Part shown: in pieces, positions 13,226 to 30,237 of the stretch
Layout of the letters: each line of letters opens with the position of its first letter
Numbering within the stretch: position 1 is the stretch's first letter
Assembly: GCA_037139415.1 (NCBI GenBank)
Contig: JBAXGN010000003.1
Coordinates: forward strand, 21,255-85,254
Source of the DNA: Verrucomicrobiota bacterium
Lineage (GTDB): Bacteria > Verrucomicrobiota > Verrucomicrobiia > Limisphaerales > Fontisphaeraceae
Direction of reading: 5' to 3'
DNA: 64,000 bases
The notes under the pieces: model-generated
The model's database searches: none
The model's input: only the letters and a program-made list of their open reading frames with translations
Told to the model about the DNA's origin: nothing
Translations under genes and position numbers: made by a program

Positions 13226-15249
13226 GGTTTGGCTCCCTCCTTTGCGTTGGTTGGTCCCGCCATGCCATGCAGGGCGGCGCGATCCGCAATCCAAGGGGTC
13301 TGCTTGCGGCTAACCTGCGGCGGGGTGGTGAACTTGATCTCGTCCACCATCCAAGCCTTATCAATTTTCTTAAAAATATACAGCATCTCGTAGTTATCCA
13401 GGGAAGCTTCACCCACTTGTTGCCCGCTGCCAATTTTTAAATCGCGATAATGCCATCGCTCTTTGGTGCGGACACGCAGTTCATCCTTCGCCTTGGACAC
13501 CTCGATCACTTCCAGCGCCAACAGACGGGAATCCAGCGTGATGCCCAAATCCAGCCGAACGCCGATCAAGCCGGTTAGCTTCTTGCCTTCATTGGGTCCC
13601 ACCACCGGGTCCACCAGCTTGATGTCGCCCCGGCGATAGGCCTCGGAGACTACTTGATTGTAGCGTTCCACTAGTTGGCGCGCCTCGGCCAGATCATGGT
13701 TCTGGCAACCGGTCTGGCCAAACAAACAGAGCGCCAGCAAAAGCCAGCCGGCTAATCCGCATTTCTCACCCACCTTCGTAGCCGTCGAAGCAAGGAGACC
13801 GGAAATTGCGGATTGCGGATTGCGGATTGCGGAATGTTCCGTCTCCTTACCTCGACGGCTACATGGAACCGGCGATTCAAGCTGAGGATGAGCAATGGCT
13901 GGCTGTGGGAGAGAACCACCATTCTCCCGCACCAATTGTTCAAAACGTTCCCGGAATAGCGGAGCGAAACGCTGTGGCTTCAAGGCGATGAATACCCGCT
14001 CCCGCTCACCCACGGGAGTGATCATCACACAACCATCTACTTTGATGATCATGAATATCATGGCGGCACCCGCCATAACCAGGACAAAGCCGGCATAGGC
14101 CAGCCACAACGCCGCGTCATGACTGCCGCGCAACCGCGCCCAAAGAGGTGTGCCGTGCAATACCAGTTTTACGCCGTCTGCAAGCACGCAGGTTTGGCCT
14201 ACGCGGGCATCTCCGAGATAAAGTAGTGCTTGATCACGCATCACCCGCACTTCCAGCACCGATGACGGATGACCGGCGTCATCCATCTGTCCGCGCAAAT
14301 GGGCACAGAGGCCATTGGGACCCGCAACCGACGCGACAAAACCGCTGTTTCCCTGTTCCGTCAGCAATACACTCTGAAAAATTGGATCATGGCCTTGGTT
14401 TCGCCATTCCAGCAAGGCAGCAGGCCCAAAATCCGCCGCCAAAAAAAGCCGTTCCCCTGAGAGATGCAAATCCTGATTGACCGCCACCTCCACAGATTGG
14501 GTTCGGCCACCCCCTGGCATATCCAGAATCACTTTAAGTTCGCGTAAATCGCCATCTTCGTAGCGTCTTGCCTTGACCGTCTTCAGGATGATCGGCTGAT
14601 CCAGGCAGACGGGCTTTCCCCAGACGCCGGGCCATTGGGCCGCCCAGGCCGAAGCCTGCGGTGCCAAGGTTTCGCCTTCCATCAAATCCACCACCGCGTC
14701 CGCCCCAAATAAAGCACGCCAGGCACCAGCGGTGATGACCAGCAATAGGCCCAGATGAAACACTGCGGAACCTGCCAACCCCAGACGCTTTTCGCTCCAA
14801 ATATGAAGGCGAGTGATGGTTTCCCGTGTAGATGAGACCACCGGTCTTTCAAATTCCGCGACGAATGGCGCGGATTGAAAATGGGCCGGACTCAAGCGCA
14901 ACGACCATTGCGCCCATAATCGTTGAACTTGTTCCACCACGATGATCAATAGGGAACCCGAGAGCAACCCTGTCAGAACCAGAAACCAGACACTTCGGAA
15001 AATATGATCAAGCGCAAAAGTTTGCACCAGAGCCAGAACGAACGGCCCGCTTTCATGCAGACGAGCCAACTCTGCCGCAGTCGCGGTGCCCGCTTGTGGC
15101 AATACCGCGCCAATCACCCCAGCAAAGGCAATTCCCACCATCTCACCGAGGATGACTCTCGGCGATCTTAGGAGCTGTTTAACGGCGTTTGGCACAAGCG
15201 TGTTGTAGCGACGATATTGGAATCTACCAAGTCTCGTTGCCGGATCCAC
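13222..15249 (-). CDS. ResB-like cytochrome c biogenesis protein fused to a lipoprotein-like domain
   Basis: A single 675-codon frame with two parts. Residues 1-~450 are ResB-like: four membrane segments (MVGIAFAGVIGAVLP, SVWFLVLTGLLSG, AVFHLGLLLVITAGAWRAL, LAYAGFVLVMAGAAMIFMI) with a large periplasmic beta region, the CcsA partner in system II. Residues ~463-491 are the palindromic repeat (KETEHSAIRNPQSAI then LLASTAT). Residues ~493-675 look like a separate lipoprotein, with a hydrophobic segment GLAGWLLLALCLFGQTGCQ, then a helical domain ending WMVDEIKFTTPPQV. A GTG at 13773 could restart translation at that lipoprotein. The 5' end overlaps the 13-haem gene by 26 bases; the GTG start at 15249 is the best available. 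Confidence 0.7.
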   Translation of the reverse strand: MDPATRLGRFQYRRYNTLVPNAVKQLLRSPRVILGEMVGIAFAGVIGAVLPQAGTATAAELARLHESGPFVLALVQTFALDHIFRSVWFLVLTGLLSGSLLIIVVEQVQRLWAQWSLRLSPAHFQSAPFVAEFERPVVSSTRETITRLHIWSEKRLGLAGSAVFHLGLLLVITAGAWRALFGADAVVDLMEGETLAPQASAWAAQWPGVWGKPVCLDQPIILKTVKARRYEDGDLRELKVILDMPGGGRTQSVEVAVNQDLHLSGERLFLAADFGPAALLEWRNQGHDPIFQSVLLTEQGNSGFVASVAGPNGLCAHLRGQMDDAGHPSSVLEVRVMRDQALLYLGDARVGQTCVLADGVKLVLHGTPLWARLRGSHDAALWLAYAGFVLVMAGAAMIFMIIKVDGCVMITPVGERERVFIALKPQRFAPLFRERFEQLVRENGGSLPQPAIAHPQLESPVPCSRRGKETEHSAIRNPQSAISGLLASTATKVGEKCGLAGWLLLALCLFGQTGCQNHDLAEARQLVERYNQVVSEAYRRGDIKLVDPVVGPNEGKKLTGLIGVRLDLGITLDSRLLALEVIEVSKAKDELRVRTKERWHYRDLKIGSGQQVGEASLDNYEMLYIFKKIDKAWMVDEIKFTTPPQVSRKQTPWIADRAALHGMAGPTNAKEGAKP
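13778..13862. repeat. Palindromic element with ATTGCGG core, copy 3
   Basis: An 85-base near-perfect inverted repeat. The left arm is 13778-13804 (GTAGCCGTCGAAGCAAGGAG, then ACCGGAA) and the right arm is 13837-13862, whose complement reads GTAGCCGTCGAGGTAAGGAG then ACGGAA. Between them lie about four ATTGCGG heptamers. It joins the ResB-like and lipoprotein-like parts of the surrounding frame. Confidence 0.88.
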
Positions 15250-17773
15250 CAGAATGATGGCTACAGGTAGTTTTACAGTATCCGCTTTCCGGGTAAGAAT
15301 AGGAGGATTTTCTGAACTGCGTTATGTTTACATAACTGAGGTTATTGCTAAACGCATACCTGGCAGGCATGGAAGTAGTAGCGATGAGGCGCGACACTTT
15401 GCCGCCGTGCGGAATAACAATGTGACAGGAGTAACACCCGGCAACCGCGCCTTGATGGTTTCCATGACCACTAAAGCTGGTTCTGTCGTTGTGACAATTT
15501 GCACACCAACTTGAGGTGAAAGTGGTAGTATTGGGCCAGATACCGGGCCCGCGCAGCATGAACTGGGTCGCTGACCCATGCGGACCTTGAGCCGCAGTAG
15601 TAGCGCCATCGGTATTATGACAATCCGAGCACATCATGGTTTGCTGGCCAACATTATTGGTCCAAGGCGGCTTCATGGCTTGTATTTGCAGCCCTCTTTT
15701 CGATGGAGTACCCACCGGAATTGAATTTGAAAAATAGTCCAACCCAGCCACAACCGGATGCCCTGACATGTTGTAAGGACTAAATTCCTGCGCCAAATCG
15801 GTTCCCCCGGACATGGCATATCCCTGACCTGAGACGGTGGCACCCGCGTAAGGCGGGGTGATGGACAGACTGGTGGTACTGGCCACATTCGTAATGCGAT
15901 AGGCGGCAGCAGGGTTATTGGTGAGATAAATCCAAAGTCCCACCATGCCCGCGCCGTTCGTAGTACCCGTTCGCCACGTGGTTCCCGATCCAGTAACCAG
16001 AGTACTATTGGTCGTAAAGCTCACCGTGCCAATAGTGTACAATGGGGTAATGCCAGCGGGTGGCGTCGAGCCAAACGCATACGCGGTATGGCACTTGAAA
16101 CAAATTTGATACTCGTTGGTCGCTCCAAAAGTCGTACTGCTGCCCTTGGAGACGAATGCGTAGTTCGCCTGATTGGTCGCCTGCCAATTATTCGTCTTGG
16201 TAGAGTAATTATAATACACCCCGGAAACGCCTTTTAACGGATTACTCACCTGATTACGCGCGGACGTCGCGATGTTGGTATAGACATGCGCTCCAACTTG
16301 GGCGAGATGCGGGTTATGGCAATCCTCGCACTCGACCGAGCGATTCGCACGTCGCCATGGATCGGCATCGCCAACGGGATGATGCACCTTATCGCCAAAA
16401 TCGGTTTTGACATTCTTATTGGCCGGGCCATCGGTGTCGTGGCACGTGAAGCATACATTTTCTTCCACATCCACCAGAAGCTTGGGATAATGCGTTGCGG
16501 TATTCGTGGCGTTGGGCCAGCCATGCGGGGCATGACAATTCACGCAACTGGCCCGGTCGGCCGCGTTGCTGCGAGCCGGAAACGTACTGCCGTATTGCCC
16601 ACCGGGCCAAAGCAAGGCGGTGTTGGTCGTGACAAAGTGCGCATCGGGAGTAATCGTATCGGCCAGTTGATGGCATTCCAGGCACATCGTGGTGCTGTTG
16701 GTAATTCGCAATAAATCCCCGTCATTGGCCTGAGCCAAATGCATCATATGGCAGGTGAGACAACGGACGTTGCTAGTGGTCTTTTCCAGTGGCAAATTGG
16801 TGGTATATTTGTAATAGGCATTGGTCACGCCCTTCAATCCCACCGGATGCGAGCCCGAAACCGAGTTGGTAACGTTGCGAACGGCATGACAATCCACGCA
16901 CATTTGTTCCGTGTTATTCGCGATGCGCATGAAATGCCGGCCCGCCCCCGTATTCGTCCCAGCATAAGCGGGTGCCTTGGGATCAAACGGTGCGTTGGTC
17001 TGGCTGTGAACATCATGACATACCGAACAATGCACCAACCCGTTGCTCATCCGCATCCACAGCGCCGCATTGGTGGGATGCCGTAGATCAGCGCGCACAA
17101 ACAGGTACCACTTATCGCTTACCTGAAACGAGGTGCCCGTACCATTAGTACACAAAAGGCCCACCCCTTCATTCAAATAATTGCTCGCAGCCACCACCAC
17201 GTTGGAAGCCCCCAAGCCACCCGGCGTGGTGGTCCAATTAAACCTGGCCGCACCCACATTGCCGTTAGTGACAATGGTAATCGTATAGGTCTTGGCGTAG
17301 GCGCCCGTGTAGAGTCCGCTGGGCAGCAACTGTCCGGTGGAAGCCGTGACCGCCCCGCGCATAAACTGGAGACGCCCGGCTGCGCCGGAATCCCAGCGGT
17401 GCGAATCACCAGTCACGATGATATTGGTATCGGCAGGCAACCCGGGCCAAACCACCGCCTGATCGCTCGCGACCAGCACTTTATTAGAGGCGCTTCCCCC
17501 GTTGATATGGCAACTGGCGCAGAGGTTAAAAATGCCGGCATTTTTTAAGATGGCGCCATTCGGACTGCCATGGGAAATGTGGCAACCGGCGCAGTTGGTG
17601 CTGGTCAGATGCGGCGGGTCCGTCGCAAAAATTTCGGATGGCAGCAGCAGAACCAGCGCGAACAGGATGGCAAACGACATCCGGGAGAGCATTCTCCAAA
17701 ATAAAATGCCGCCCCTGGCCCCCTCGAACCATGGATATATGCGCCGACTGACGGCGGCGGCTACGAGCTTCAT
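15224..17773 (-). CDS. Exported 13-haem c-type cytochrome with inserted beta domains
   Basis: An 849-residue multihaem cytochrome for periplasmic or extracellular electron transfer. I count 13 CXXCH motifs: CAGCH, CASCH, CSVCH, CVDCH, CLTCH, CLECH, CVNCH, CFTCH, CEDCH, CFKCH, CSDCH, CANCH, CYSCH. A final CKTTCSHH is of unclear status. A hydrophobic export segment (SFAILFALVLLLPSEIFA) sits at residues 32-49; GGAGG lies about 6 bases before the ATG at 17773, supporting that start. Two haem-free insertions occur, between haems 2 and 3 (~120 residues) and between haems 10 and 11 (~577-651), the latter resembling a phage tail-fibre beta domain. First gene of the minus-strand operon; divergent from the Rrf2 cluster. 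Confidence 0.88.
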   Translation of the reverse strand: MKLVAAAVSRRIYPWFEGARGGILFWRMLSRMSFAILFALVLLLPSEIFATDPPHLTSTNCAGCHISHGSPNGAILKNAGIFNLCASCHINGGSASNKVLVASDQAVVWPGLPADTNIIVTGDSHRWDSGAAGRLQFMRGAVTASTGQLLPSGLYTGAYAKTYTITIVTNGNVGAARFNWTTTPGGLGASNVVVAASNYLNEGVGLLCTNGTGTSFQVSDKWYLFVRADLRHPTNAALWMRMSNGLVHCSVCHDVHSQTNAPFDPKAPAYAGTNTGAGRHFMRIANNTEQMCVDCHAVRNVTNSVSGSHPVGLKGVTNAYYKYTTNLPLEKTTSNVRCLTCHMMHLAQANDGDLLRITNSTTMCLECHQLADTITPDAHFVTTNTALLWPGGQYGSTFPARSNAADRASCVNCHAPHGWPNATNTATHYPKLLVDVEENVCFTCHDTDGPANKNVKTDFGDKVHHPVGDADPWRRANRSVECEDCHNPHLAQVGAHVYTNIATSARNQVSNPLKGVSGVYYNYSTKTNNWQATNQANYAFVSKGSSTTFGATNEYQICFKCHTAYAFGSTPPAGITPLYTIGTVSFTTNSTLVTGSGTTWRTGTTNGAGMVGLWIYLTNNPAAAYRITNVASTTSLSITPPYAGATVSGQGYAMSGGTDLAQEFSPYNMSGHPVVAGLDYFSNSIPVGTPSKRGLQIQAMKPPWTNNVGQQTMMCSDCHNTDGATTAAQGPHGSATQFMLRGPGIWPNTTTFTSSWCANCHNDRTSFSGHGNHQGAVAGCYSCHIVIPHGGKVSRLIATTSMPARYAFSNNLSYVNITQFRKSSYSYPESGYCKTTCSHHSGGSGNETW

Positions 17774-18556: not shown

Positions 18557-19117
18557 ATGCTAAGTTTGTCACAGAGTACCGGCTATGCCATTCATGCCCT
18601 CAGTTGCATGAAGCATGACGGCGTGTGCCTGATCCAGGATATCTCCCGGCGCACAGGCATTCAGAAGCCGTATCTGGCCAAGCTCGTCCACAAACTTTCA
18701 GGCCTGAACCTGATTCTCAGCAAACGCGGTCGCCAGGGCGGAATCATGCTGGCTAGGCCGCTCGATGAAATCACCGTGCTGCAAGTGGTAGAGGCGGTGG
18801 AAGGGCGCGCTTGGATGGGACAGTGCCTGCTGGGATTGCACGCCTGCAACGCGCAGCATATTTGCCCCTCCCACAAATTGTGGACGAAGATGAAAGAGCA
18901 GATTTGCAAGTCGCTGCAAAAAATCACGCTGGCGGATGTGTCGGCGGAGAAGTTACGAAATCAGGGCAACTGCATGCCGGACCGCTGCCAGGCGTCCGGG
19001 CGACGGCGGCCAAGCGGCAGGCCGACGCAAACAAAGGACGCAAATCAAATTTTCGGTGACGGTGACAGACCAACCGACGCCAAAACTGTGGTGCAAGGAG
19101 CAAGGAAGCCCCACTGA
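18557..19117 (+). CDS. Rrf2-family Fe-S transcriptional regulator
   Basis: About 186 residues. The N-terminal winged-helix matches Rrf2 proteins (LSLSQSTGYAIHALSCM, ISRRTGIQKPYLAKLVHKL, the wing KRGRQGG, then ITVLQVVEAVEG). Cys90, Cys97 and Cys103 (C-x6-C-x5-C) occupy the place of the IscR/NsrR cluster ligands, so it probably senses iron-sulphur status, NO or redox state. ATG 18557 fits the conserved family N-terminus; a TTG seven codons upstream is open. The C-terminal ~50 residues are a basic, Pro-rich, probably disordered tail. It is the first gene of the plus-strand cytochrome cluster and its likely regulator. Confidence 0.88.
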   Translation: MLSLSQSTGYAIHALSCMKHDGVCLIQDISRRTGIQKPYLAKLVHKLSGLNLILSKRGRQGGIMLARPLDEITVLQVVEAVEGRAWMGQCLLGLHACNAQHICPSHKLWTKMKEQICKSLQKITLADVSAEKLRNQGNCMPDRCQASGRRRPSGRPTQTKDANQIFGDGDRPTDAKTVVQGARKPH

Positions 19118-19191: not shown

Positions 19192-19827
19192 ATGAATGCA
19201 GTAAAATACCTATTCAAACTCGCCGCCGCAGTTGCTATTGTGGCCAGCTCCATATTGGCCACTGCGGTCACTGCCAACGGCGCGACCACCATCAAAGGCA
19301 GCAAACATGATTTGACCCTTCAAACTTGGGGGACCAATCAAATCTGCATCTATTGCCACGCCTCACACAATGCGCTATCCACCTTGGTGCCATTGTGGAA
19401 CCACGGAACCACGGTACAGGCCGCCTATACCCTGTATGGCAACCCGAACGGCACGATGCAGGCGGTAACGGCCCAGCCCTCCGGCACTTCCAAGGCCTGT
19501 TTGAGCTGCCATGACGGAACGGTGGCCAACGACACCTTCGGCGGGGCAACGGGCAGCCACAGCATCTCTGGCCTCTCAAATCTGGGCACCGACCTCAGCA
19601 AAACACATCCCATATCATTCACCTATGACGCCGCGCTAGCCATCGCGGACAAAGCGCTGGTCTCCCCGGCCTCCGCCGCCAAAGTGGACGCGGCAGGCAA
19701 CATTCCGCTCTTCCTCGGAAAAGTGGAGTGCGGTTCCTGCCATGCCGTGCATGATAGCACCTATACTCCCTTCTTGCGGATGAACAACAACGGCAGCGCG
19801 ATGTGTCTGACCTGCCATATTAAGTAA
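19192..19827 (+). CDS. Exported tetrahaem c-type cytochrome
   Basis: A 211-residue protein with signal peptide (VKYLFKLAAAVAIVASSILA) and four CXXCH sites: CIYCH, CLSCH, CGSCH, CLTCH. The order QICIYCHASHN, LWNHG, ACLSCHDGTVA, THPISFTYD, VECGSCHAVHD, MCLTCH is repeated closely by the N-terminal four haems of the 578-residue cytochrome at 24484, so the two share a tetrahaem module. It is probably a periplasmic electron shuttle between the membrane protein at 26239 and the outer-membrane complex. A strong hairpin follows the gene. Confidence 0.9.
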   Translation: MNAVKYLFKLAAAVAIVASSILATAVTANGATTIKGSKHDLTLQTWGTNQICIYCHASHNALSTLVPLWNHGTTVQAAYTLYGNPNGTMQAVTAQPSGTSKACLSCHDGTVANDTFGGATGSHSISGLSNLGTDLSKTHPISFTYDAALAIADKALVSPASAAKVDAAGNIPLFLGKVECGSCHAVHDSTYTPFLRMNNNGSAMCLTCHIK

Positions 19828-20001: not shown

Positions 20002-21108
20002 ATGCAATCCATTGGTCAGAAGATGAAGCGGTTGCCCTTGCAAGCTGGGTCAATTGGCTGGCTGGTCGGCGCAAGCGCGTGCTTTTGGGTAGCGATCACC
20101 TTGCCCCTCATAGCAGCGGCTCCAAAAGAGGCCGCCGCCGGCGCGAATAAACGATTTATCTTTTATCCCCCCCGCCCTGCCCCGCCGCGCATTCAGTACT
20201 TGTTCAGTTGCGGCAACAACGAAGATTGGGGCGTTCGCCCCAGTACCTTCACGCAATTTTTAGTGGGCAAAGAACCGCCCAAGACATTTCTCAAGCCGTA
20301 CGGCGTGGCCATCCGGGACAATCAAATTTTTGTCGCCGACACCGGCGCCAGAAATATCACGATTCTGGATTTGAACAAAAAGTCCATGCGCTATTTTGCG
20401 CCAAGCGGAGAAGGCCGACTGGGGACCCCCATCAATATTTCGGTGGACGCGGACGGCACCCGCTACATTGCCGACACCGGACGCGGGCAGGTGTTGATTT
20501 TTGGCAAGGACGAATCGTTCCTGGGTGCCATTGGCAACAAAGAGGAGACGCGGCCCACCGATGTGAAAATATTTAAAGACGCGTTGTATGTGGTGGATGT
20601 GAAAAAACGCTGCATCCGGGTTTATGACAAAGCCAGCCACAATTTAACGCGCACCTTTCCGGACCAAGCCAAGGCGGAAATTACGCAATTAATTTCCCCC
20701 ACCAACCTGGCCTTGGATACTCAAGGGCGGTGTTACGTGGCTGACTTGATGGGGAAAGTGCTGTGCTTTGGAGCCGACGGCCAATATTTGCGGGCCATTG
20801 GCAATATCGGAGATTCGCCGGGCGAATTTGTCCGGCCAAAGGGAATGGCGGTGGATCGCGAGGATCGGTTGTATGTGGTGGATGCCGCCAGTCAAGTGGT
20901 GCAAGTTTTTGATTCCGCCGGCCGGTTGTTAATGTATTTTGGTGACGCGATCTTAAACCTTCCGGCGGGCATCGCGATTGACTATGAGCATAACAACCAT
21001 TTCCAAAAATACGTAGCCCCCGACTTCAAGCTGGAATTCCTGATTCTGGTCATCAGCCAAGTGGGTGAAGAAAAACTCAGTGTCTTTGGTTTTGGCCATA
21101 AACTTTGA
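20002..21108 (+). CDS. Exported NHL-repeat beta-propeller protein (first of pair)
   Basis: A 368-residue protein with hydrophobic export segment (IGWLVGASACFWVAITLPLI). Start is ATG 20002, or ATG 20023 seven codons later. After it comes the Pro-rich signature FYPPRPAPPRIQYLFS. Six-blade NHL/beta-propeller repeats follow (YGVAIRDNQIFVADTGARNI, ISVDADGTRYIADTGRGQV, LALDTQGRCYVADLMGK, MAVDREDRLYVVDAASQV). A paralogue with the same pattern (VWPEPPAPPRLAYVQS) lies three genes downstream. It has no haem motif. A periplasmic or surface scaffold that docks the cytochromes and barrel is plausible by context. Confidence 0.8.
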   Translation: MQSIGQKMKRLPLQAGSIGWLVGASACFWVAITLPLIAAAPKEAAAGANKRFIFYPPRPAPPRIQYLFSCGNNEDWGVRPSTFTQFLVGKEPPKTFLKPYGVAIRDNQIFVADTGARNITILDLNKKSMRYFAPSGEGRLGTPINISVDADGTRYIADTGRGQVLIFGKDESFLGAIGNKEETRPTDVKIFKDALYVVDVKKRCIRVYDKASHNLTRTFPDQAKAEITQLISPTNLALDTQGRCYVADLMGKVLCFGADGQYLRAIGNIGDSPGEFVRPKGMAVDREDRLYVVDAASQVVQVFDSAGRLLMYFGDAILNLPAGIAIDYEHNNHFQKYVAPDFKLEFLILVISQVGEEKLSVFGFGHKL

Positions 21109-21371
21109 TCCCGAGCGTGCGCGCCTCACCCCAACATCGTTCCCGTCCAAGAGCAGAAGCACGCCTGTTTTGGTGTTGTCTGGTCGTGGGCATGGGCCTC
21201 GGGCTTTTGCTGGTCAGCGGCTGTGCGACCCAAACGAAACACGCTTGGTTGACGTTTTTCTTTGATGGCGTACCGCCGGTGACAACGAAGGGTGTCAGCG
21301 CCATGCCAGCCACCGTGGTTGGGACCACCAACGCCCCCGTAAACCCTGATGTCAGCAGGGGAATTCAATGA
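21105..21371 (+). CDS. Small lipoprotein with FFFDGVPP motif
   Basis: Up to 88 residues, starting at TTG 21105 overlapping the preceding stop, or at GTG 21117. A hydrophobic segment ends in a lipobox, LLLVSGCATQT, so it is probably lipid-anchored. The short mature part carries KHAWLTFFFDGVPPVTT; similar K-H-x(3-4)-F-F-F-D-G-V-P strings occur, as I recall, in small proteins next to multihaem cytochrome clusters of other phyla. It overlaps the barrel gene by ATGA, suggesting a fixed stoichiometry with the porin. Confidence 0.65.
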   Translation: MIPSVRASPQHRSRPRAEARLFWCCLVVGMGLGLLLVSGCATQTKHAWLTFFFDGVPPVTTKGVSAMPATVVGTTNAPVNPDVSRGIQ

Positions 21372-23380
21372 ACGCCTGGCCGATCAAGAACAGTGCGCCG
21401 GTATGGCTACTCCTGCTGGGACTGGTTGGCGTTGGCAGCCCCCTGATGGCCCAGTATCGGAATGAGGACCAGTCACCACAATTTCAATGGCTGCGCGCCA
21501 AAGTAACCGAGGTGGGGGTAACCTTGGAAGTCGAGAGCGAGAATGAAACCCGGCAAAGTCCTAACTCCGACGTCTCAAAACGCAGCTACACGTACATCGC
21601 CCCCCTGGTCAACCTGGGCATCCAAGGTTCGATCTATCACCCCAACTTGATGGAGTTCAAACTGAGCGGACAGGATGGGGTCAGTTGGCAGCAACAAACG
21701 CTCAACCAGCAGGCGGGACGCAACCAACCCGGCAGCGAATCCGCGTTTCGCTTTTTGCAGCGGTACCATGGTGACTTAAACATTCTCAAAGAAAAGCCGT
21801 TTTCGCTCAATTTTTTCGCGGACAAGGACCATAATTTCCGGCAGTTCGATTTTTTCAATCGCTCCACGGTGGATAGCCAACGGTATGGCGGACGCGCCGG
21901 TTACCAGGAAGGTCCACTGCCCTTCAATCTGGGCGTGACGCATTTGGACGAGCAAGTTTCAGCGACAATTCGTCCGACCACCTTGGATGAAACCACTGCC
22001 TCCTTTGATATTCGCCATGATCGCTCGCGCACCTCCAACACCCGGTTGAGCTACAGCTATGATCAATTTGACCGCCGGGAGTCGGGTGTTCCCGTCCAAC
22101 AAGGCACGTATCACGCGGTGAATCTGCTGGATGATGAGGCGTGGGGCAAGGACGACCGGTACAAATTATCGTCCAGCCTGTTTTACAACAAACTGGAGAA
22201 CCAGATGCTGCCCACGACCAGCCTGCTGATCCAGGAACATGGCATTGCGGAACACACCAAGGAACTGCAGAGCAATTTGGAGTATGGGTTTGATAACAAC
22301 ACGGCGGGAACCACGCAGAGCCAGGGCCAAAACGGCCAGATCGCCTTGCGCCATCAATTATACGAGAGCCTATCCTCGGTCTTGGAAACGCATCTCCACA
22401 CCCTCGACTCTTCCAGTCCGACCGCCAGCACGGAGAATCTGCGGTACGGGGTTGGTCTGAGCGAGTCCTATACGAAACATGTGGGAAGTTGGGGAATTCT
22501 GACTTTGGGCTACAACGGCCGGTATGATATCGAACAACGCCAAAACACCGGAACCATCATTCTGATCGTGGGTGAGCCACACACCATGAAAAAAGGGATC
22601 ATTGTTTATTTAAACCAACCACGCGTCATTAAAGTCATTCGCATCACGGACATGACTGGCAAAGCGTATGTGGAAAATCTCGACTACCGACTCGTCCCGC
22701 ACGGGGATTTGATGCAGATTGATTGGGAGACCCTGCCCGCCACCACGATCAAGGATGGCGATGGCATCCTGGTGGACTATCAAGTCGCCGTCCAACCGTC
22801 GGCCACCTTCACCACGATCGCCAACCAGTTGTACTTCCGCCTGGACATCCTAAAAGGTCTGGTGGGCATCTATGGACGCTGGAATGCGGTCAATAACCAC
22901 GGCGGGCGGGACGTCATTTTGCAGAATATTTCGGACAAAGTCATCGGCACTGATTTTTCCTGGCGCTGGTTCCGGGCCGGGGCGGAATACGAACTCTACG
23001 ATTCCAACCTGGCCCCGTATAATTCCAAACGGCTGTTCGAGGCGTTCAATTTTGAACCCGACGCGAACTCCGTGCTGGGTATTGATCTGGACCAGACGTG
23101 GTTCACATTTACGGATAGCAACCGGCGGCGGGCCAGCTATAGTTTTATCTCGCGCTACAACACCCGCTTTACCACCCATCTTGCCTGGTCGGCGGAGGGC
23201 GGGGTACGCATGGATCGCGGCGTTGGGTTTGACCAAACCATGGTGGTGGCCAAGACCGGCCTCGAATACACCCGCAACCTGCTTTCGTTAAAAATGGGCT
23301 ACGATTACTCGGATCAGGATTACCTGGGTGAATTGCGAACGCGCCACTTCTTTTTCCTGCACATCAAGCGATCCTTCTAA
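21368..23380 (+). CDS. Outer-membrane beta-barrel protein of the cytochrome cluster
   Basis: A 670-residue exported protein (signal peptide ending SPLMAQ). The body alternates polar and aromatic residues in many predicted beta strands (YTYIAPLVNLGIQGSIYHPN, LSYSYDQFDRRE, SFISRYNTRFTTHLAWSAEG) and ends HIKRSF, a C-terminal aromatic as in outer-membrane barrels. A central soluble segment near 395-480 (ITDMTGKAYVENLDYRLVP) resembles a small beta domain. It lies between two NHL proteins and upstream of a multihaem cytochrome, as in porin-cytochrome conduits, so it is the best candidate for the channel holding a cytochrome across the outer membrane. There is no sequence-level match to MtrB that I can name. 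Confidence 0.75.
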   Translation: MNAWPIKNSAPVWLLLLGLVGVGSPLMAQYRNEDQSPQFQWLRAKVTEVGVTLEVESENETRQSPNSDVSKRSYTYIAPLVNLGIQGSIYHPNLMEFKLSGQDGVSWQQQTLNQQAGRNQPGSESAFRFLQRYHGDLNILKEKPFSLNFFADKDHNFRQFDFFNRSTVDSQRYGGRAGYQEGPLPFNLGVTHLDEQVSATIRPTTLDETTASFDIRHDRSRTSNTRLSYSYDQFDRRESGVPVQQGTYHAVNLLDDEAWGKDDRYKLSSSLFYNKLENQMLPTTSLLIQEHGIAEHTKELQSNLEYGFDNNTAGTTQSQGQNGQIALRHQLYESLSSVLETHLHTLDSSSPTASTENLRYGVGLSESYTKHVGSWGILTLGYNGRYDIEQRQNTGTIILIVGEPHTMKKGIIVYLNQPRVIKVIRITDMTGKAYVENLDYRLVPHGDLMQIDWETLPATTIKDGDGILVDYQVAVQPSATFTTIANQLYFRLDILKGLVGIYGRWNAVNNHGGRDVILQNISDKVIGTDFSWRWFRAGAEYELYDSNLAPYNSKRLFEAFNFEPDANSVLGIDLDQTWFTFTDSNRRRASYSFISRYNTRFTTHLAWSAEGGVRMDRGVGFDQTMVVAKTGLEYTRNLLSLKMGYDYSDQDYLGELRTRHFFFLHIKRSF

Positions 23381-24487
23381 ATGCGTTCAATCCTCACATA
23401 TCCATGGTTGAAAAAGCCGGATACGACCCAGGCTGGGGAAAAGCATCTGGTGGGGTGGGATGTAAATACGGTTCCGTATGCCATCCTCACCCTGGCGCTC
23501 AGCACGTTTTTGTTCAGTGGTTGCAGCTTGGTAAAGGCCCCGCACGTTGCGGACAAGCCGGTGTATCGCGTCTGGCCGGAGCCCCCTGCTCCGCCGCGTC
23601 TGGCGTATGTTCAGAGCGTGTATGAACCGGCCGATCTGGGAGTCCGCTGGAACGGCAGGCAACGATTCTCACGCTGGCTGTTTGGCACGGAACCTGGCCA
23701 GGGCAAACTGATCAAACCTTTCGGCGTGGCGTTGGACGAAACGGATAACCTTTGCCTCACGGATACCGGGTCCAGGGTGGTATGCTATTTCGACCGCACC
23801 CGGAAAACCTGGCAGAGCTGGAATAAGATCGGGCGAATCCAATTGGTCTCTCCCGTCGCGGTGGCCAAATATCAAAACCGGTTGTTTGTCGCGGACTCGG
23901 GCTTGGGCAAAGTGCTGGCATTCGACCCGCAGGGAAAATTCCTGTTCGAGTTGAATCATCCACTGGAGCGTCCAGCGGGCCTGGTGATCGCCAATGGCAA
24001 ACTGTATGTGGCGGATGCGGGCGCGCATCAGGTTTTGGCGTTTGATCTGCACGGCAACTTTCTGTCCGCCATGGGCACCCGCGGCACCGGACCCGGCGAA
24101 TTGAATTACCCGACCCACCTGGCAACCGATGGGCAAGGCCGGGTGCTGGTTACCGACTCGATGAACTGCCGGGTGCAAATCTTCGATACCGAGGGACGTT
24201 ATGTGCAAACCATTGGCAGCCAGGGCGACAGTTCGGGCAACCTCAGCCGCCCCAAGGGAGTGGGCGTGGACAGCGACCGCAATGTGTATGTATTGGACGC
24301 CCTGTTCGACAATGTACAAGTATTTGATCAGGAAGGGCGTTTTCTATTAGGGGTGGGTGGCCCCGGGCCGGGGGCGGGAGAGTTTTGGATGCCTGCCGGA
24401 CTGGCGATTGGTCGGGACAACCAGATATTTGTGGCGGATACGTATAACCGCCGGATTCAAATTTTCAAATACCTCCATCAGCCATGA
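23381..24487 (+). CDS. NHL-repeat lipoprotein (second of pair)
   Basis: A 368-residue protein starting at the base after the barrel stop. A hydrophobic segment ends in the lipobox STFLFSGCSLV (Cys near 49), giving a lipid-anchored protein. The signature VWPEPPAPPRLAYVQS precedes NHL repeats (FGVALDETDNLCLTDTGSRV, VVAKYQ-type blades, THLATDGQGRVLVTDSMNCR, VGVDSDRNVYVLDALFDNV, LAIGRDNQIFVADTYNRRI), about six blades in all. It is the same length as the paralogue at 20002. The ATGA overlap with the next gene couples it to the 12-haem cytochrome. Confidence 0.82.
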   Translation: MRSILTYPWLKKPDTTQAGEKHLVGWDVNTVPYAILTLALSTFLFSGCSLVKAPHVADKPVYRVWPEPPAPPRLAYVQSVYEPADLGVRWNGRQRFSRWLFGTEPGQGKLIKPFGVALDETDNLCLTDTGSRVVCYFDRTRKTWQSWNKIGRIQLVSPVAVAKYQNRLFVADSGLGKVLAFDPQGKFLFELNHPLERPAGLVIANGKLYVADAGAHQVLAFDLHGNFLSAMGTRGTGPGELNYPTHLATDGQGRVLVTDSMNCRVQIFDTEGRYVQTIGSQGDSSGNLSRPKGVGVDSDRNVYVLDALFDNVQVFDQEGRFLLGVGGPGPGAGEFWMPAGLAIGRDNQIFVADTYNRRIQIFKYLHQP

Positions 24488-26220
24488 ACGCGAACCCAAT
24501 ATCAGTCCGAATACGCGGCACCGCGCGCAAGCCAAACGGTCCGTTTTGGCGAGGCTGGATTCTCGTAGCGCTGTTGCCATTCGCAAGCGTGGCGGACCCG
24601 ATCGGGCAAGGCATTCGCAGTTCCAAACACAACCTCTCGGCATCCAGTCCGGGCACCGTCAAGTCGGTGACGGAAACCGAAATCTGCATTACCTGCCATA
24701 CCCCGCACACCGTGAAACGACAGGCGCCACTCTGGAACCACCAAGATTCCGGTGCGGTGTACACCCCCTACACTAGCTCGACCAAAAAAGCTACGATCGG
24801 ACAGCCCACCGGCGCATCCAAGCTTTGCCTGAGTTGCCATGACGGTACCATCGCCATGGGCATGGTGCAAAAAACACGTCTCAATAAAAGCGCGCAGCCG
24901 GAGATCCGGACCCTGGCCTCTGGGGCAATCAAAATCGGCCCGGACTTATCCGATGATCATCCGATTTCGTTCACCTACGACTCCGCCCTGGTCATGGCCA
25001 ACGGCCAACTCCGCGATCCAGCCAGCCTGACCGGACCGGTTCACCTGGACGCAAACAAGCAGGTGCAATGCACCTCGTGCCATTCCGCGCACGACAACAA
25101 GAATGGCAAATTCCTGGTACAAAACAACTACGGTTCCACCCTGTGCATGGCCTGCCACAACCTGGCCCGGTGGGACCTATCAGTGCATAAACTTTCCACC
25201 AAAACGTGGAATGGCGTCCCCCCCAACCCCTGGTCGCATACCAAGGAAACGACGGTGCTCGCCAACGGTTGTGAGAATTGCCACCGGCCGCACTCGGCCG
25301 GCACCAAAGCCCGGTTGCTTAATTATCCCGGGGACGAATCCAACTGTTACCCGTGCCATAATGGCAATGTGACGGCGAACAGCATCCAGAAGGAATTCAA
25401 CAAAACCTCGGTCCACCCCATCACGTTCACCACCGGCGTGCATGATCCCATGGAAGATGCGGTGAATGCCACCCGGCATGTCACCTGCGTGGATTGCCAT
25501 AATCCGCACGCGGTCAACGCGCAAACCGCCAAGGCCCCGCTGGTTTCCGGCTCCCTGGCCGGCGTCAAGGGTGTCACTGCCACCGGGGCCCGCATCACCC
25601 CGATCTCCCGTGAATACGAGTTGTGTTTCCGTTGTCACGCAGACAGTCCGGGGCGCGGGGCACCCTCCGTGCAACGCCAATTTCCGCAAACAAACACCCG
25701 GTTGGAATTTGGTTCCGCCAGCGGTTCCTATCACCCGGTGGTCAATCTCGGCAAAAACCCGAATGTCCCCAGCCTGATTTCACCATGGACCACCAGCAGC
25801 CTGATGTATTGCACGGACTGCCACAATAATAACACCGGACCGGGGGCGGGTGGGAATGGGGCCAAAGGGCCGCATGGCTCGACCTATGCGCCGATCCTGG
25901 AACGCCGCCTGGAGTTGACCGATAATCAAATCGAAAACTCCGCCTCATACGCGCTTTGCTACAAATGCCACAGTCGCGCCAGCATCCTAAGTGATCAGAG
26001 CTTCAAAACGCACAATAAACACATCACCACCGCGCGAACCGCTTGTACCACGTGTCACGATTCGCACGGGGTGGCGGCCGCCAACCATTTGATTAACTTC
26101 AACACCTTGTACGTGACCAAATCCTCCGGCGGACGTTTGGAGTTTGTTGACAATGGCACGTATCGCGGAACCTGTTACCTCACCTGCCATGGAAAGGATC
26201 ACAACCCTTTGTCGTACTAG
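24484..26220 (+). CDS. Exported multihaem cytochrome, 11 CXXCH plus one CX3CH
   Basis: A 578-residue protein with export signal (WRGWILVALLPFASVADP). CXXCH sites are CITCH, CLSCH, CTSCH, CMACH, CENCH, CYPCH, CVDCH, CFRCH, CTDCH, CYKCH and CTTCH. The C-terminus ends GTCYLTCHGKDHNPLSY, a CX3CH arrangement that could bind a twelfth haem. The N-terminal ~200 residues repeat the tetrahaem module of the 19192 cytochrome. Given its place behind the barrel and NHL lipoprotein, it is the likely outer-membrane or surface electron carrier of the conduit. Known: CXXCH binds haem c covalently. Inferred: location and partner. Confidence 0.88.
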   Translation: MNANPISVRIRGTARKPNGPFWRGWILVALLPFASVADPIGQGIRSSKHNLSASSPGTVKSVTETEICITCHTPHTVKRQAPLWNHQDSGAVYTPYTSSTKKATIGQPTGASKLCLSCHDGTIAMGMVQKTRLNKSAQPEIRTLASGAIKIGPDLSDDHPISFTYDSALVMANGQLRDPASLTGPVHLDANKQVQCTSCHSAHDNKNGKFLVQNNYGSTLCMACHNLARWDLSVHKLSTKTWNGVPPNPWSHTKETTVLANGCENCHRPHSAGTKARLLNYPGDESNCYPCHNGNVTANSIQKEFNKTSVHPITFTTGVHDPMEDAVNATRHVTCVDCHNPHAVNAQTAKAPLVSGSLAGVKGVTATGARITPISREYELCFRCHADSPGRGAPSVQRQFPQTNTRLEFGSASGSYHPVVNLGKNPNVPSLISPWTTSSLMYCTDCHNNNTGPGAGGNGAKGPHGSTYAPILERRLELTDNQIENSASYALCYKCHSRASILSDQSFKTHNKHITTARTACTTCHDSHGVAAANHLINFNTLYVTKSSGGRLEFVDNGTYRGTCYLTCHGKDHNPLSY

Positions 26221-26238: not shown

Positions 26239-29200
26239 ATGAAATACCGGGAACTCATCCAGTTTGAACCCCTCACGGGAGCGGTTCGGCTTCAAGACGC
26301 CAATCGCAAGGACGCGGCGAAGCGGCTGGTGTCCGACTTCCTGATTTCCGGGGAGATGGCCGCCCGACTGACGGGACAGATTTTCCCCCATCTGCAACTC
26401 GAACGCGCGGGCGAAGGCAAGGCGCTGCTGGTGACCGGCAACGGCGGACGCGGCAAAACCCATTTAATTGCCGCAGTATCCGCCCTCGCGGAATACGCGG
26501 AGTTGGCGGAAGCCGTCACCAACCCTAAGGCGGTCCAGGCAGAGGCCACCAACCGCAAAGGCAACGCCGGAATCGAAGCCATTGCCGGCCGCTTTAAAGT
26601 CATTCGCATTGAGCTTGGCGCATCCTCCAAGACGCTGCGGGATCTCCTCACCCGCCGCTTCACCACCTACCTGGCTTCCCAGGGAGTTGCGTACACCTTC
26701 CCGCCTTTCACCAGGGGTAAAGTCCACAAATCGGGATTCGAGGGAATGATGGCGGCGTTCCATCAGCAGTTTCCCGACCACGGGTTATTGGTGGTGGCGG
26801 ATGGTTTGCAAGCGCATCTGGAGCCACGCAAAGGTCAGGAATTGGCCGAGGATTTGCAGTTCCTGCGCGAACTGGGCGAGGCGTGCCAGCACTTGAAGTT
26901 CCGCTTCCTGGCCAGCTCCCGGGACGCGCTTTTCGACCATGCCCAGGACAAACCCACCACCGACATTCTCCACCGGGTCAAGGAGCAATTTCACACGGTG
27001 GCGCTCAACACCCGAGATGCCGCCTATATCGTGGCCGAACGCCTGACCCGCAAGACGCCCGAACAAAAGGCGCAGGTGCAGTCGCATTTGGCCAGGTTTG
27101 CCAAATACTATGGCAACCTGAAGGATCGGATGTCGGAGTTCGTGGCCTTGTTCCCGCTTCACCCCGACTTCCTGACCGTCTGCGAAAAGATCAACTTCGC
27201 CGAAGGCCAGTGCCTGCTGCGCGCAGTCTCAGACCTCATCAAGCAGCGGTTGGACGAACCGCTTCCCCAAGACGATCCCGGCCTGATTGCCTATGACCAT
27301 TACTGGGACATCATCCATACCCGGTCAGCCTGGCAATCCATACCTGAAATCGAGGCTGTCACCGAGCGTTACATCACCTTAAATGCCAAACTGGGGAAAG
27401 TCCTGGCGTGCTCCGATCAACAAGATCTGGCCCGGCGCCTTCTGAATGCCTTGTGCGTGTACCGCCTAGCCACCAGCGATATTTATTGCCAGACGGGTGC
27501 CACCGCCCCGGAATTTCGGGATCTGCTCTGCCTGTGCCGACCCGGCTTGGAGACCGACGGCGTGCAACCGGCGGAAAAGCTATTGGCTGAGGTGAAAGAG
27601 GTGCTCACCGCGCTGCACCAGGCGACGGGCAACCAGATCCTCTCCTTTAACCCGGAGAACCAGCAGTACTATCTGAATTTCCAAAAGTTCCGGCGCTTCG
27701 TCCGTCCGGAGTTGGTGCTGCACTGGGTCAACGCCGTTCCGTTCGTCCTCTTGATGCTCACCGGCGGCATTATGGCGGCAGCGCGATTCTTCCAGATGAA
27801 CCGCGAATGGATGTCCATGGTGGTGCTGGTACACAAGGTCTTTGCCATTTTCTGGATCACTGCCCTGCCCCTCGTGGTGTTGCTGCGGCCCAAGGTCCAC
27901 TGGGCGCACATCCGCATCGTGTTGAGCTGGGGCAAAAAGGACCTGCTCTGGATGGTGCAATCGGTGCGCAGCCTGTACGACAAAAAAGCCGTCATCGCCG
28001 CCGTGGGCCGCTTCAACACCGGCCAGAAGATCAACGCCTCCCTGGTGATGGTGTATTTCATTGGCTTTGGGTTGACCGGCCTGCTCATGCTGTTCAAGGG
28101 CACCATTCTGGTGCCATGGTATCTGCATGCGGCGTTGTTCTTCGCCACCACGGGCTCGGTGGGCGGTCACCTATTCCTGGCACTGCTCAATCCCAGCACG
28201 CGCATTGCGCTGATGGGCATCTTTCACGGCTGGTCGCCCATGGAATACGTCGAGCATCATCACACCCTCAGCTTGCCGCCCTCAATGCGTTCGCACGCCG
28301 AACCGGCCAGCAACAAAACCATCATGGAGGAAATTTTTGTTTCCAAGGTGGAAGTTGTCATCCTCGCGGTGGCGGTGATCATGGCCATCCTTGGCGCCAT
28401 CGTATTCAGCCAGGCTCCACTGGCCTCGGCAAAACAGCAATTCTCCAAGCATTTCTCGGCCACCATCACCCCAAATCAATTATCCACCAAGCATCGCCTT
28501 GGACCGGCGGCGGAATCCTGCACCAAGTGCCATGCCTACGCGGGCGAAATCCCCGACGCCAAATGCGTGGAGTGTCATAAGGACGTTCAGGCGCGACGCG
28601 TCAGCCTGGCCGGGTACCACGGCACCCTGAAAGGTTCCTGCATCAGTTGCCACAAGGAACACTTGGCCATGGGCAAATCCATTGTGCCGCTGGTCAAAGA
28701 GAAATTTGATCACAACCTGGCCAGCTTCAAGAAAGAGGGCAAACACATCAAAGTGAATTGCGATGAATGCCATAAGAAAACCCGCACCAAGGATACCCCC
28801 GGCATTTATTACATCGGCATCAAGTACCAGCAATGCACCGATTGCCATCGCGATCAGCACAATCAGCAGTTCGCCGCCAACACCTGCGAGAAATGCCATA
28901 CCGTTAATGGCTGGACCGGAAAGGATCTGAAGTTTGCGCACGACAAGGACTCCACATACAAGTTGACGGACAAACACGCCTCCGTGGAATGCTACAAGTG
29001 TCACAAACCCAAAGCGCCCGCCACTGCACTGGGCACCGCCGTATTCAAAGGGCTCTCGCAGGAATGCGTGGCCTGCCACGAAGATCCCCACCGCAAACAA
29101 TTCGCCGCCCAATGCACCACCTGCCATACCCCCAAGGGCTGGAACAAGGAATTATTGACGTTCGAGCATAACAAGGATTCCAAGTTCAAACTGACGGAAA

Positions 29201-30237
29201 AACATACCGCGGTGGCCTGCGACAAATGCCACAAACCCGAGCTCGGGAAAAAGCTCGCTTCCGCGCTCTTCCGTGGTCTGAAATCTGAGTGCGTGGAATG
29301 CCACAAGGACCCGCACAACAGACAGTTTCAGCAAACCTGCGCCAAGTGCCATGCTGCCACCGGTTGGAAGAAGGAACTGTTGGCGTTCGATCACAATAAA
29401 GACAGCAAGTTCAAACTGACGGACAAACATGCCGCTGCCGCCTGCGACAAATGCCATAAGCCGACCGACCCGGAGAAGAAACTGGCCTCCGCACAGTTCC
29501 GTGGCTTGAAGTCCGAGTGCGTGGATTGCCATAAGGACCCGCACAATGGACAATTCCAGCAGGCCTGCACCAAGTGTCACACCGCCCCCACCACCTGGAC
29601 GATCAAGCAACTCGCGTTTGACCATACCAAGGACACCAAGTTCACATTGACGGGCAGGCATATCCCGTTGGAGTGCGTGAAGTGTCACAAGCCGACCGAT
29701 GCGGACAAAAAACTCGCCTCCGCCAAGTTCAAGGGGCTCGACACCACCTGCGACAAGTGTCATACCGTCAAACACCCGGAACAGTACGGTTCGCTCTGCG
29801 TCTCCTGCCACTCCACCGCCAATCCATTCATCAAGAAAGACCCGGGCACCACGCATATTCTGCGTTATACCTGCTTTGGCGAAGCCCTCACCGGCAAGCA
29901 TTTGAAAGCCAAATGCAACACCTGCCATGAACCCGCGAAAATCGCCCTTCTGGGGCAATTAACCCCGGCGGATCAGACGTGCCTGCGCTGCCACCAGAAG
30001 GATGACGCGCACAAGGGCATGCTGGATGCCAACTGCACCAAGTGTCACGGCATGGAAGGTTGGAAGGGCGAACATCTCCAGTTCGACCACAACACCATGT
30101 CAAGCTACCGGCTCAACCAGGACCACAAGAATGTGGCGTGTGCGAAATGCCATAAGGATGGCAAATGGAAACCGGTGAGCACCGCCTGTGAAAGCTGCCA
30201 TCCAAAATTCTTCGAGGGCGGGGCCAAGAAACCGTAG
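26239..30237 (+). CDS. DUF6079-like ATPase / cytochrome b / 23-haem cytochrome c fusion
   Basis: A 1332-residue protein with three parts. (i) Residues 1-~485: a P-loop domain matching the DUF6079 (PglY-type, BREX-associated) pattern, with KYRELIQFEP, Walker A GNGGRGKT (67-74), LRDLLTRR, LFPLHPDF and NPENQQYYL. Its Walker B reads LLVVADGLQAHL, with Gly189 where Glu is usual. (ii) Residues ~486-680: a four-helix FdnI/HydC-type b cytochrome with His495, His532, His630 and His644, plus one more helix at ~705-730. (iii) Residues 761-1321: 23 CXXCH motifs in tandem units. Topology should be ATPase in the cytoplasm and c-haems in the periplasm. It resembles CbcL-type quinol oxidases in function but has a different domain order and an added ATPase. 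No start codon with a ribosome site marks an internal gene boundary. Confidence 0.85.
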   Translation: MKYRELIQFEPLTGAVRLQDANRKDAAKRLVSDFLISGEMAARLTGQIFPHLQLERAGEGKALLVTGNGGRGKTHLIAAVSALAEYAELAEAVTNPKAVQAEATNRKGNAGIEAIAGRFKVIRIELGASSKTLRDLLTRRFTTYLASQGVAYTFPPFTRGKVHKSGFEGMMAAFHQQFPDHGLLVVADGLQAHLEPRKGQELAEDLQFLRELGEACQHLKFRFLASSRDALFDHAQDKPTTDILHRVKEQFHTVALNTRDAAYIVAERLTRKTPEQKAQVQSHLARFAKYYGNLKDRMSEFVALFPLHPDFLTVCEKINFAEGQCLLRAVSDLIKQRLDEPLPQDDPGLIAYDHYWDIIHTRSAWQSIPEIEAVTERYITLNAKLGKVLACSDQQDLARRLLNALCVYRLATSDIYCQTGATAPEFRDLLCLCRPGLETDGVQPAEKLLAEVKEVLTALHQATGNQILSFNPENQQYYLNFQKFRRFVRPELVLHWVNAVPFVLLMLTGGIMAAARFFQMNREWMSMVVLVHKVFAIFWITALPLVVLLRPKVHWAHIRIVLSWGKKDLLWMVQSVRSLYDKKAVIAAVGRFNTGQKINASLVMVYFIGFGLTGLLMLFKGTILVPWYLHAALFFATTGSVGGHLFLALLNPSTRIALMGIFHGWSPMEYVEHHHTLSLPPSMRSHAEPASNKTIMEEIFVSKVEVVILAVAVIMAILGAIVFSQAPLASAKQQFSKHFSATITPNQLSTKHRLGPAAESCTKCHAYAGEIPDAKCVECHKDVQARRVSLAGYHGTLKGSCISCHKEHLAMGKSIVPLVKEKFDHNLASFKKEGKHIKVNCDECHKKTRTKDTPGIYYIGIKYQQCTDCHRDQHNQQFAANTCEKCHTVNGWTGKDLKFAHDKDSTYKLTDKHASVECYKCHKPKAPATALGTAVFKGLSQECVACHEDPHRKQFAAQCTTCHTPKGWNKELLTFEHNKDSKFKLTEKHTAVACDKCHKPELGKKLASALFRGLKSECVECHKDPHNRQFQQTCAKCHAATGWKKELLAFDHNKDSKFKLTDKHAAAACDKCHKPTDPEKKLASAQFRGLKSECVDCHKDPHNGQFQQACTKCHTAPTTWTIKQLAFDHTKDTKFTLTGRHIPLECVKCHKPTDADKKLASAKFKGLDTTCDKCHTVKHPEQYGSLCVSCHSTANPFIKKDPGTTHILRYTCFGEALTGKHLKAKCNTCHEPAKIALLGQLTPADQTCLRCHQKDDAHKGMLDANCTKCHGMEGWKGEHLQFDHNTMSSYRLNQDHKNVACAKCHKDGKWKPVSTACESCHPKFFEGGAKKP
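28831..29760 (+). repeat. Tandem ~228-base trihaem coding repeats
   Basis: About four units encode E-C-V-x-C-H-x-D-P-H, then Q-F-x-x-x-C-x-x-C-H, then K-D-S-K-F-K-L-T and C-D-K-C-H-K-P. The unit starting near 29290 and the one near 29518 are 228 bases (76 residues) apart and similar at base level. Each carries three CXXCH motifs. The outer units are more diverged, consistent with growth from the middle. Confidence 0.8.

What the first reader, a model, noticed from the sequence alone, without database searches (positions are those of the whole stretch)
26239..30237. DUF6079-type ATPase fused to a b-type cytochrome and a 23-haem c-type domain
One uninterrupted frame of 1332 codons joins three normally unrelated parts: a P-loop domain of the kind associated with BREX-like phage defence (PglY/DUF6079), a four-helix FdnI-type dihaem b cytochrome, and a periplasmic domain with 23 CXXCH motifs. 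The b-haem His spacing (495/532/630/644; steps 37, 98, 14) is very close to that of formate dehydrogenase-N gamma as I remember it. The junction is clean, running from the conserved DUF6079 ending (NPENQQYYL) straight into the b-cytochrome start (RPELVLHWVN). The protein could couple quinol oxidation and external electron transfer to a cytoplasmic ATPase: a redox-gated sensor, a defence trigger, or an assembly factor. I know of no described protein with this architecture.
Basis: partly seen in the sequence, partly recalled or inferred. Interest (0 to 1): 0.93.

Follow-up and report, generated by a model that had tools for sequence, protein, structure and literature searches.

The report
Defence ATPase piece capping respiratory nanowire
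One protein family, whose named carriers are nearly all Verrucomicrobia, welds the predicted ATP-binding end of a phage-defence protein onto a membrane cytochrome that is predicted to send electrons out of the cell, which would give these cells a likely way to tie external respiration to their energy state.

Summary
The 1332-codon frame joins the N-terminal AAA+ plus winged-helix part of BrxC/DUF6079 (profile positions 1-473 of 1238), an FdnI-like b-cytochrome domain and 23 CXXCH motifs. It is no artefact: one search found 17 further such proteins (45-56% identity), and 85 classified proteins include 70 fusions. Of these, 21 lack the P-loop core but keep the helical/winged-helix part; a single loss is rejected (p-AU 0.0005). 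In the other 49, Walker A and the Walker-B Asp persist in 47, while catalytic Glu plus both arginine fingers are complete in only 3, against 99 of 100 stand-alone relatives. Winged helix to first haem-ligand His is 16 residues in 70 of 70. The gene ends a porin-like/NHL/multihaem cluster; the genome has no PglZ hit and no other DUF6079.

Best reading: an inner-membrane quinol-oxidising cytochrome of an extracellular electron conduit, with a BrxC-derived cap that likely binds but rarely hydrolyses nucleotide and tunes it. The electron path is well supported; gating is inferred. My searches found no printed description.

The parts
26239..30237 (+). Fusion gene, 1332 codons: BrxC-type AAA+/wHTH - b cytochrome - 23 x CXXCH
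26239..26265 (+). N-terminal peptide (residues 1-9, MKYRELIQF); a counterpart is kept in 19 of 21 core-less relatives
   Evidence: short strand signals in models
26326..27024 (+). P-loop AAA+ core, residues 30-262; absent in 21 of 70 fusions
26437..26460 (+). Walker A GNGGRGKT, residues 67-74
26788..26805 (+). Walker B region, residues 184-189; Asp188 kept, catalytic Glu position is Gly189
27025..27690 (+). Helical bundle (lid) and first winged helix, residues 263-484, present in all 70 fusions (cut short in P0132 and P0155)
27676..27723 (+). Junction, residues 480-495, wing end to first haem-ligand His; no length change in 70 of 70
27703..28188 (+). Four-helix FdnI-like b-type domain, residues 489-650, His 495/532/630/644
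28312..28464 (+). Fifth long helix, predicted membrane exit before the haem domain, residues 692-742
28519..30201 (+). 23 CXXCH motifs, residues 761-1321, largely built of about 76-residue units with three motifs each
24484..26220 (+). 11-CXXCH multihaem cytochrome; 18 bases separate it from the fusion gene
23381..24487 (+). NHL-repeat protein
21368..23380 (+). 670-aa protein without a Pfam match, likely outer-membrane porin (by position and its look; not shown)
20002..21108 (+). NHL-repeat protein
19192..19827 (+). 4-CXXCH cytochrome
18563..19117 (+). Rrf2-family regulator, E 2.6e-30
15224..17773 (-). 13-CXXCH cytochrome of the divergent operon
13222..15249 (-). ResB-like cytochrome c biogenesis protein
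12332..13294 (-). Cytochrome c assembly protein (CcsA/ResC type)
10818..12410 (-). B12-binding radical SAM protein
9022..10821 (-). NHL plus Ig-domain protein

Best explanation
The 1332-residue protein joins the AAA+-winged-helix part of the phage-defence ATPase BrxC to an FdnI-like b-cytochrome domain and a 23-CXXCH domain, and it is predicted to pass electrons from quinol to an extracellular electron conduit under likely control by nucleotide bound to the BrxC part. Shown by calls: the domains, the gene cluster, the family, the repeated loss of the P-loop core, the retained binding residues and lost hydrolysis residues, and the invariant junction. Inferred: quinol is oxidised near the cytoplasmic-side b haem (His495/His644); electrons cross to the second haem (His532/His630), enter the periplasmic c-haem arm and pass to the 11- and 13-CXXCH cytochromes and the porin-like protein. 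Inferred: the winged helix, fixed 16 residues before the haem-ligand His, caps the cytoplasmic face; in core-bearing members ATP (or ADP) binding shifts this cap and tunes quinol access or pairing of two cytochromes, so that electron export follows the cell's energy charge. Core-less members would run without this control.
Confidence: 0.45

Rival explanations
1. The BrxC part is now only a structural cap: lid, winged helix and N-terminal peptide stabilise the b cytochrome or bind a partner, and the P-loop core is a passenger that is being lost.
Against: 47 of 49 cores keep Walker A and the Walker-B Asp, the relatives at 26-52% core identity to the window protein; a passenger should lose these as readily as the fingers.
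Confidence: 0.3
2. ATP-driven pairing scaffold: ATP-bound BrxC parts bring two or more cytochromes together to assemble or align the conduit, without gating flux.
For: BrxC 1-551 dimerises with ATP and the Walker-B mutant holds the dimer (PMC13326643, passages); many fusions have lost the same Glu.
Against: The arginine fingers that contact the partner's ATP are both present in only 4 of 49, and 21 of 70 lack the core.
Confidence: 0.15
3. Membrane-tethered redox sensor that binds DNA through the winged helix.
For: Winged helix present in all 70 fusions; DNA-binding winged helices appear among weak fold matches of the core-less model.
Against: BrxC 1-551 alone did not bind DNA; the helix at 444-463 of the window protein is not rich in basic residues.
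Confidence: 0.05
4. Defence trigger or BREX part.
For: BrxC-PglY profile match, E 1.5e-150.
Against: No PglZ hit, no other DUF6079, no BrxF-like hit (a search without a positive control); C-terminal two thirds absent; neighbours are electron-transfer genes.
Confidence: 0.03
5. Assembly or frame artefact.
For: The window lies in a draft assembly of 378 contigs; no reads were available.
Against: Same architecture in 17 further proteins at 45-56% identity and in named loci.
Confidence: 0.01

Closest known systems
BrxC (DUF6079), AAA+ ATPase of BREX; structures 9zdx, 9zll, 9zn5
   Different: Only positions 1-471 of 1231; no alpha+beta domain, second wHTH or dimer end; catalytic Glu and fingers mostly lost; fused to a membrane cytochrome; no PglZ hit or second DUF6079 in the genome. 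The NCBIfam PglY model (NF047891) gave no hit for P0001 at E 0.01.
FdnI, b subunit of formate dehydrogenase-N (1kqf_C; TIGR01583)
   Different: TIGR01583 41.7 bits against a cut-off of 115.85; no formate dehydrogenase among the neighbours examined; a fifth helix leads to c-type haem motifs.
b cytochrome plus multihaem proteins without BrxC part (P0175, P0176; Thermodesulfobacteriota/Proteobacteria by source name)
   Same: 44-45% identity over the b and c parts; same four His.
   Different: Short N-terminal tail in place of the BrxC part.
CbcL, Geobacter inner-membrane quinol dehydrogenase
   Same: Role: quinol oxidation feeding external electron transfer (PMC7096707, passages). That CbcL also joins b- and c-haem parts is recalled.
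   Different: No BrxC part (recalled; not compared by sequence here).
Porin-multihaem clusters of freshwater Verrucomicrobia (PMC5615132, PMC6344600; passages)
   Same: Phylum, porin plus multihaem gene clusters, proposed external electron transfer.
   Different: The terms 'cytochrome b' and 'ATPase' do not occur in the main text of PMC5615132, nor 'cytochrome b' and 'AAA' in that of PMC6344600. Whether the clusters are homologous was not tested.

Membership tests
BrxC (BREX) | N-terminal ORC/Cdc6-type AAA+ with wHTH | tested here: met
BrxC (BREX) | Central alpha+beta domain, second wHTH and C-terminal dimerisation part (about 1200-1300 aa) | tested here: not met
   Profile match ends at 473 of 1238 and 471 of 1231; cytochrome follows
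BrxC (BREX) | Walker A, Walker-B Glu, arginine fingers | tested here: not met
   Window protein: Walker A yes, Glu to Gly189, R246 yes, R to Gln250
BrxC (BREX) | Occurs with PglZ | tested here: not met
   No PglZ hit in a 98% complete genome (two control genomes rang)
PglY (BREX-2) | NCBIfam NF047891 equivalog score | tested here: not met
   No hit for P0001 at E 0.01; stand-alone P0023 16.6 bits against 1700
FdnI-type di-haem b cytochrome | Four-helix fold with four haem-ligand His | tested here: met
   haem binding itself not tested
FdnI (TIGR01583 equivalog) | Score over the curated cut-off | tested here: not met
   41.7 against 115.85 bits
FdnI | Quinone site at cytoplasmic-side haem | not testable with these tools
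   needs binding assay or structure
External-electron-transfer quinol dehydrogenase (CbcL/CymA role) | Inner-membrane b/c cytochrome encoded with a porin-multihaem conduit | tested here: inconclusive
   Multihaem, NHL and cytochrome c assembly genes are there; porin identity of 21368-23380 is likely, not shown
External-electron-transfer quinol dehydrogenase (CbcL/CymA role) | Quinol oxidation and external reduction activity | not testable with these tools
   needs biochemistry
Inactive STAND (iSTAND, BrxB/BrxF type) | Degenerate Walker A and B | tested here: not met
   Walker A and Asp188 intact in P0001 and in 47 of 49

The most novel reading that the evidence does not exclude
A phage-defence AAA+ switch has been captured by respiration: its ATP-binding head sits directly on the quinol site of a nanowire cytochrome and works as an energy-charge valve for electron export, a kind of direct nucleotide gating of an extracellular respiratory chain for which I know no precedent; several lineages later cut out the switch and kept its adaptor.
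Probability: 0.3. Interest if true: 0.95.

Novelty: new variant of a known kind. Interest (0 to 1): 0.8.

Why it matters
Bacteria that dump electrons outside the cell must match that flow to their energy needs, and no direct link from nucleotide level to the inner-membrane electron gate is known to me. This family offers a ready natural experiment: related cytochromes with an intact binding head, with a decayed one, and with the head cut out. It also shows a defence ATPase module moved into bioenergetics, with binding and hydrolysis residues parting ways. Even if gating fails, the family would define a new inner-membrane component for multihaem clusters of a kind already reported from humic lakes.

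Tried and rejected
Artefact: rejected and named loci. 'DUF6079 ending': rejected, it is position 473 of 1238. Active ATPase as the common function: rejected. One single loss of the core: rejected (p-AU 0.0005, 19 of 21 core-less rows; P0132 and P0155, which start mid-lid, left out). Core gained later rather than lost: disfavoured because 19 of 21 core-less rows still begin with a DUF6079-like N-terminal peptide. Sensor-2 Arg400 as a sign of nucleotide binding: dropped, since core-less forms keep it. Plain phmmer of the whole protein and of a stand-alone against solved structures found nothing; profiles did. The model of the core-less P0130 is poor beyond the b domain (mean pLDDT 54.5), so no reading of the haem arm was made. 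The BrxF-like search of the own genome had no positive control. Paper searches 53 and 75 served only to find background; nothing from 75 is used. Searches handed jobs in; 39, 59, 65, 68, 70 and 72 only waited.

Limits: one search listed 120 of 212 hits and one search listed 120 of 1024; 85 proteins (P0001-P0020 and P0121-P0185) were classified, the 35 remaining (P0186-P0220) were not. 100 stand-alones (P0021-P0120) served as comparison, 26 of them in the lid tree, which was a quick tree with four long rows (P0132, P0158, P0159, P0172). The 7 b+c-only rows of the b/c tree were my choice out of more. The genome-contig scan used two short peptide patterns, so other carriers may be missed. In one search the G269 fusion frame (1364 aa) was not opened, and G242 was read only as a contig-end piece. 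Several loci and proteins are the same genes (for example L008, L036 and P0002), so the sets must not be added up. Of the eight stand-alone loci L026-L033, three were tested for BrxF.
Full report

IT IS A FAMILY. One search found 17 further proteins (P0002-P0018) with BrxC part, b part and c part at 45-56% identity over 94-100% of the query. One search, with the b and c parts as query, listed 120 of 1024 hits. I classified 85 proteins (P0001-P0020, P0121-P0185): 49 with P-loop core, lid and b part; 21 with lid and b part but no core; 13 with b part only (fragments and b+c-only proteins); 2 with none of these. On a tree of the b and first c part (77 rows) the 70 fusions stand apart from 7 chosen b+c-only rows with support 100/100. 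On a quick lid tree the 26 stand-alone proteins used lie on one side of a branch (SH-aLRT 96). This fits one fusion event but does not prove it. Twelve named loci came from genome contigs (L008-L019). Eleven titles name Verrucomicrobia or Opitutae; the twelfth (L011) says 'bacterium', but it has the same place and start as G464, a genome of the window's phylum. L020-L025 are b cytochromes at 23-27% identity and were dropped. One database protein (P0142) bears the label Candidatus Paceibacterota.

HOW COMMON. In the window's order, PF19557 rang in 37 of 320 genomes. Reading the loci showed core-bearing fusions in G013, G073, G101 and G268 besides G000; G269 is likely, its frame not opened. Core-less matches are in G232, G233, G242 and G246, with G242 only a contig-end piece without haem motifs. 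Eight loci (L026-L033) are stand-alone BrxC-type genes. Three of these eight (L026, L031, L032) were tested and all three have BrxF next door. In an even sample of the phylum, 2 of 387 genomes had a fusion (G000, G464) and 7 a stand-alone N-terminal match. The family is rare. These sets overlap with the loci.

BINDING KEPT, HYDROLYSIS LOST. BrxC uses K78 (Walker A), E269 (Walker B), R430 (sensor 2) and K326/R330 of the partner (fingers) (passages). The stand-alone profile aligns with BrxC, which puts E269 at window residue 189 and the fingers at 246 and 250 (my reading of that alignment). In 49 core-bearing fusions: Walker A and Asp188 47; Glu189 18 (Asp 20, Gly 4, Gln 3, others 4); R or K at 246 in 25; R at 250 in 11; both fingers 4; everything 3 (P0005, P0016, P0170). 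Of 100 stand-alones 99 have everything. A second alignment gives the same counts for these positions. The window protein has GNGGRGKT, Asp188, Gly189, Arg246, Gln250. Against a strict reading: 38 of 49 have an acid at 189, and 31 of 49 have two basic residues somewhere in 244-252, against 26 of 26 stand-alones. In BrxC the Walker-B E269Q change stabilises the ATP dimer, and the 1-551 piece alone has reduced ATPase activity. So I expect nucleotide binding with slow or no turnover. In fusions the core lags the lid by 0.07-0.14 in identity at lid identity 0.55-0.80 (60 pairs), against +0.10 to -0.05 in stand-alones in the same bins: the core is under weaker constraint, which also fits the passenger rival.

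RIGID JUNCTION. From the column of L479 at the wing end to His495 there are 16 residues in 70 of 70 fusions, while the six b+c-only relatives printed have short tails of varying length before the same R-F...E..LHW start. The BrxC part is thus set at a fixed distance from the first haem-ligand helix.

THE CONDUIT. His 495, 532, 630 and 644 are invariant in 70 of 70 and 7 of 7. A fifth long helix (692-742) would carry the chain to the periplasm. The c part has 14, 17, 20, 23 or 26 CXXCH motifs in 1, 1, 43, 23 and 2 of 70 fusions: always steps of three, from units of about 76 residues (three units of the window protein are 51-68% identical). Upstream on the same strand lie Rrf2, a 4-CXXCH cytochrome, NHL, a porin-like protein, NHL and an 11-CXXCH cytochrome; divergent are a 13-CXXCH cytochrome, ResB, CcsA-type, B12-radical SAM and NHL-Ig. 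L008 keeps the seven same-strand genes in order plus the divergent 13-CXXCH gene. A porin-like homologue was seen in 6 of 12 loci, the 11-CXXCH homologue in 7, the 4-CXXCH homologue in 6. The ResB, CcsA-type, radical SAM and NHL-Ig homologues occur together in 7 of 12 (L009, L010, L011, L013, L014, L016, L018), the radical SAM protein at 73-78% identity; L012 has the NHL-Ig homologue at 45%. So each of the 12 has at least one neighbour homologous to the window's cluster; several contigs end close by. Porin-multihaem clusters of humic-lake Verrucomicrobia were proposed for external electron transfer in PMC5615132 and PMC6344600 (passages). The same role is likely here; homology of the clusters was not tested.

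NOT BREX. The genome has no other DUF6079 and no PglZ hit. A BrxF-like query found nothing (no positive control).

MECHANISM AND CONFIDENCE. Electron path from quinol through b haems to the c arm and the conduit: about 0.85, from families and cluster. Nucleotide binding by core-bearing members: about 0.7. Tuning of the electron path by that binding: about 0.45; the passenger rival stands at 0.3.

IN PRINT. DUF6079 occurs in 2 papers of the library, both on BREX. In PMC12839542 the searched words 'heme' and 'cytochrome' (listing) have no occurrence. Searches listed no paper that looks to describe this fusion (listings, apart from the passages named). Most subscription journals are not in that library. 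Databases already hold such proteins under names like 'DUF6079 family protein' or 'cytochrome b subunit of formate dehydrogenase'.

Noticed in passing
28519-30201 and 70 fusion proteins: CXXCH counts are 14, 17, 20, 23 or 26, always differing by multiples of three; the arm seems to grow or shrink by whole three-haem units.
   Followed up: partly
18563-19117 (+): The Rrf2 regulator at the head of the cluster has Cys at 88, 95 and 101 (C-x6-C-x5-C), perhaps an iron-sulphur sensor of the IscR/NsrR kind (recalled likeness).
   Followed up: no
10818-12410 (-): A B12-binding radical SAM protein sits among cytochrome c biogenesis genes; it is 73-78% identical in 7 of 12 loci, the highest identity of the four divergent genes compared. 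Its role there is unknown.
   Followed up: partly
L027 and L028 (genomes G141 and G055, different family codes): The stand-alone BrxC-type locus has the same gene layout and starts in two genomes of different families, which suggests recent transfer or cross-contamination.
   Followed up: no
L015 and L019 (both from assembly bin-1644): One Opitutae assembly holds two different fusion genes.
   Followed up: no
52045-60933 (+): 2962-aa protein with lamin-tail, Ig, CotH-kinase and chitobiase-like domains.
   Followed up: no
P0019 and P0173: Fusions with a core-like stretch but without Walker A, apparent halfway stages of core decay.
   Followed up: partly
residues 554 and 673-675 of the fusion: His554 and His674/675 on the predicted cytoplasmic side are invariant in 70 of 70 fusions (His673 in 69); the triple His is also in 7 of 7 b+c-only rows, His554 in 2 of 7. 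A metal or quinone role is possible.
   Followed up: no
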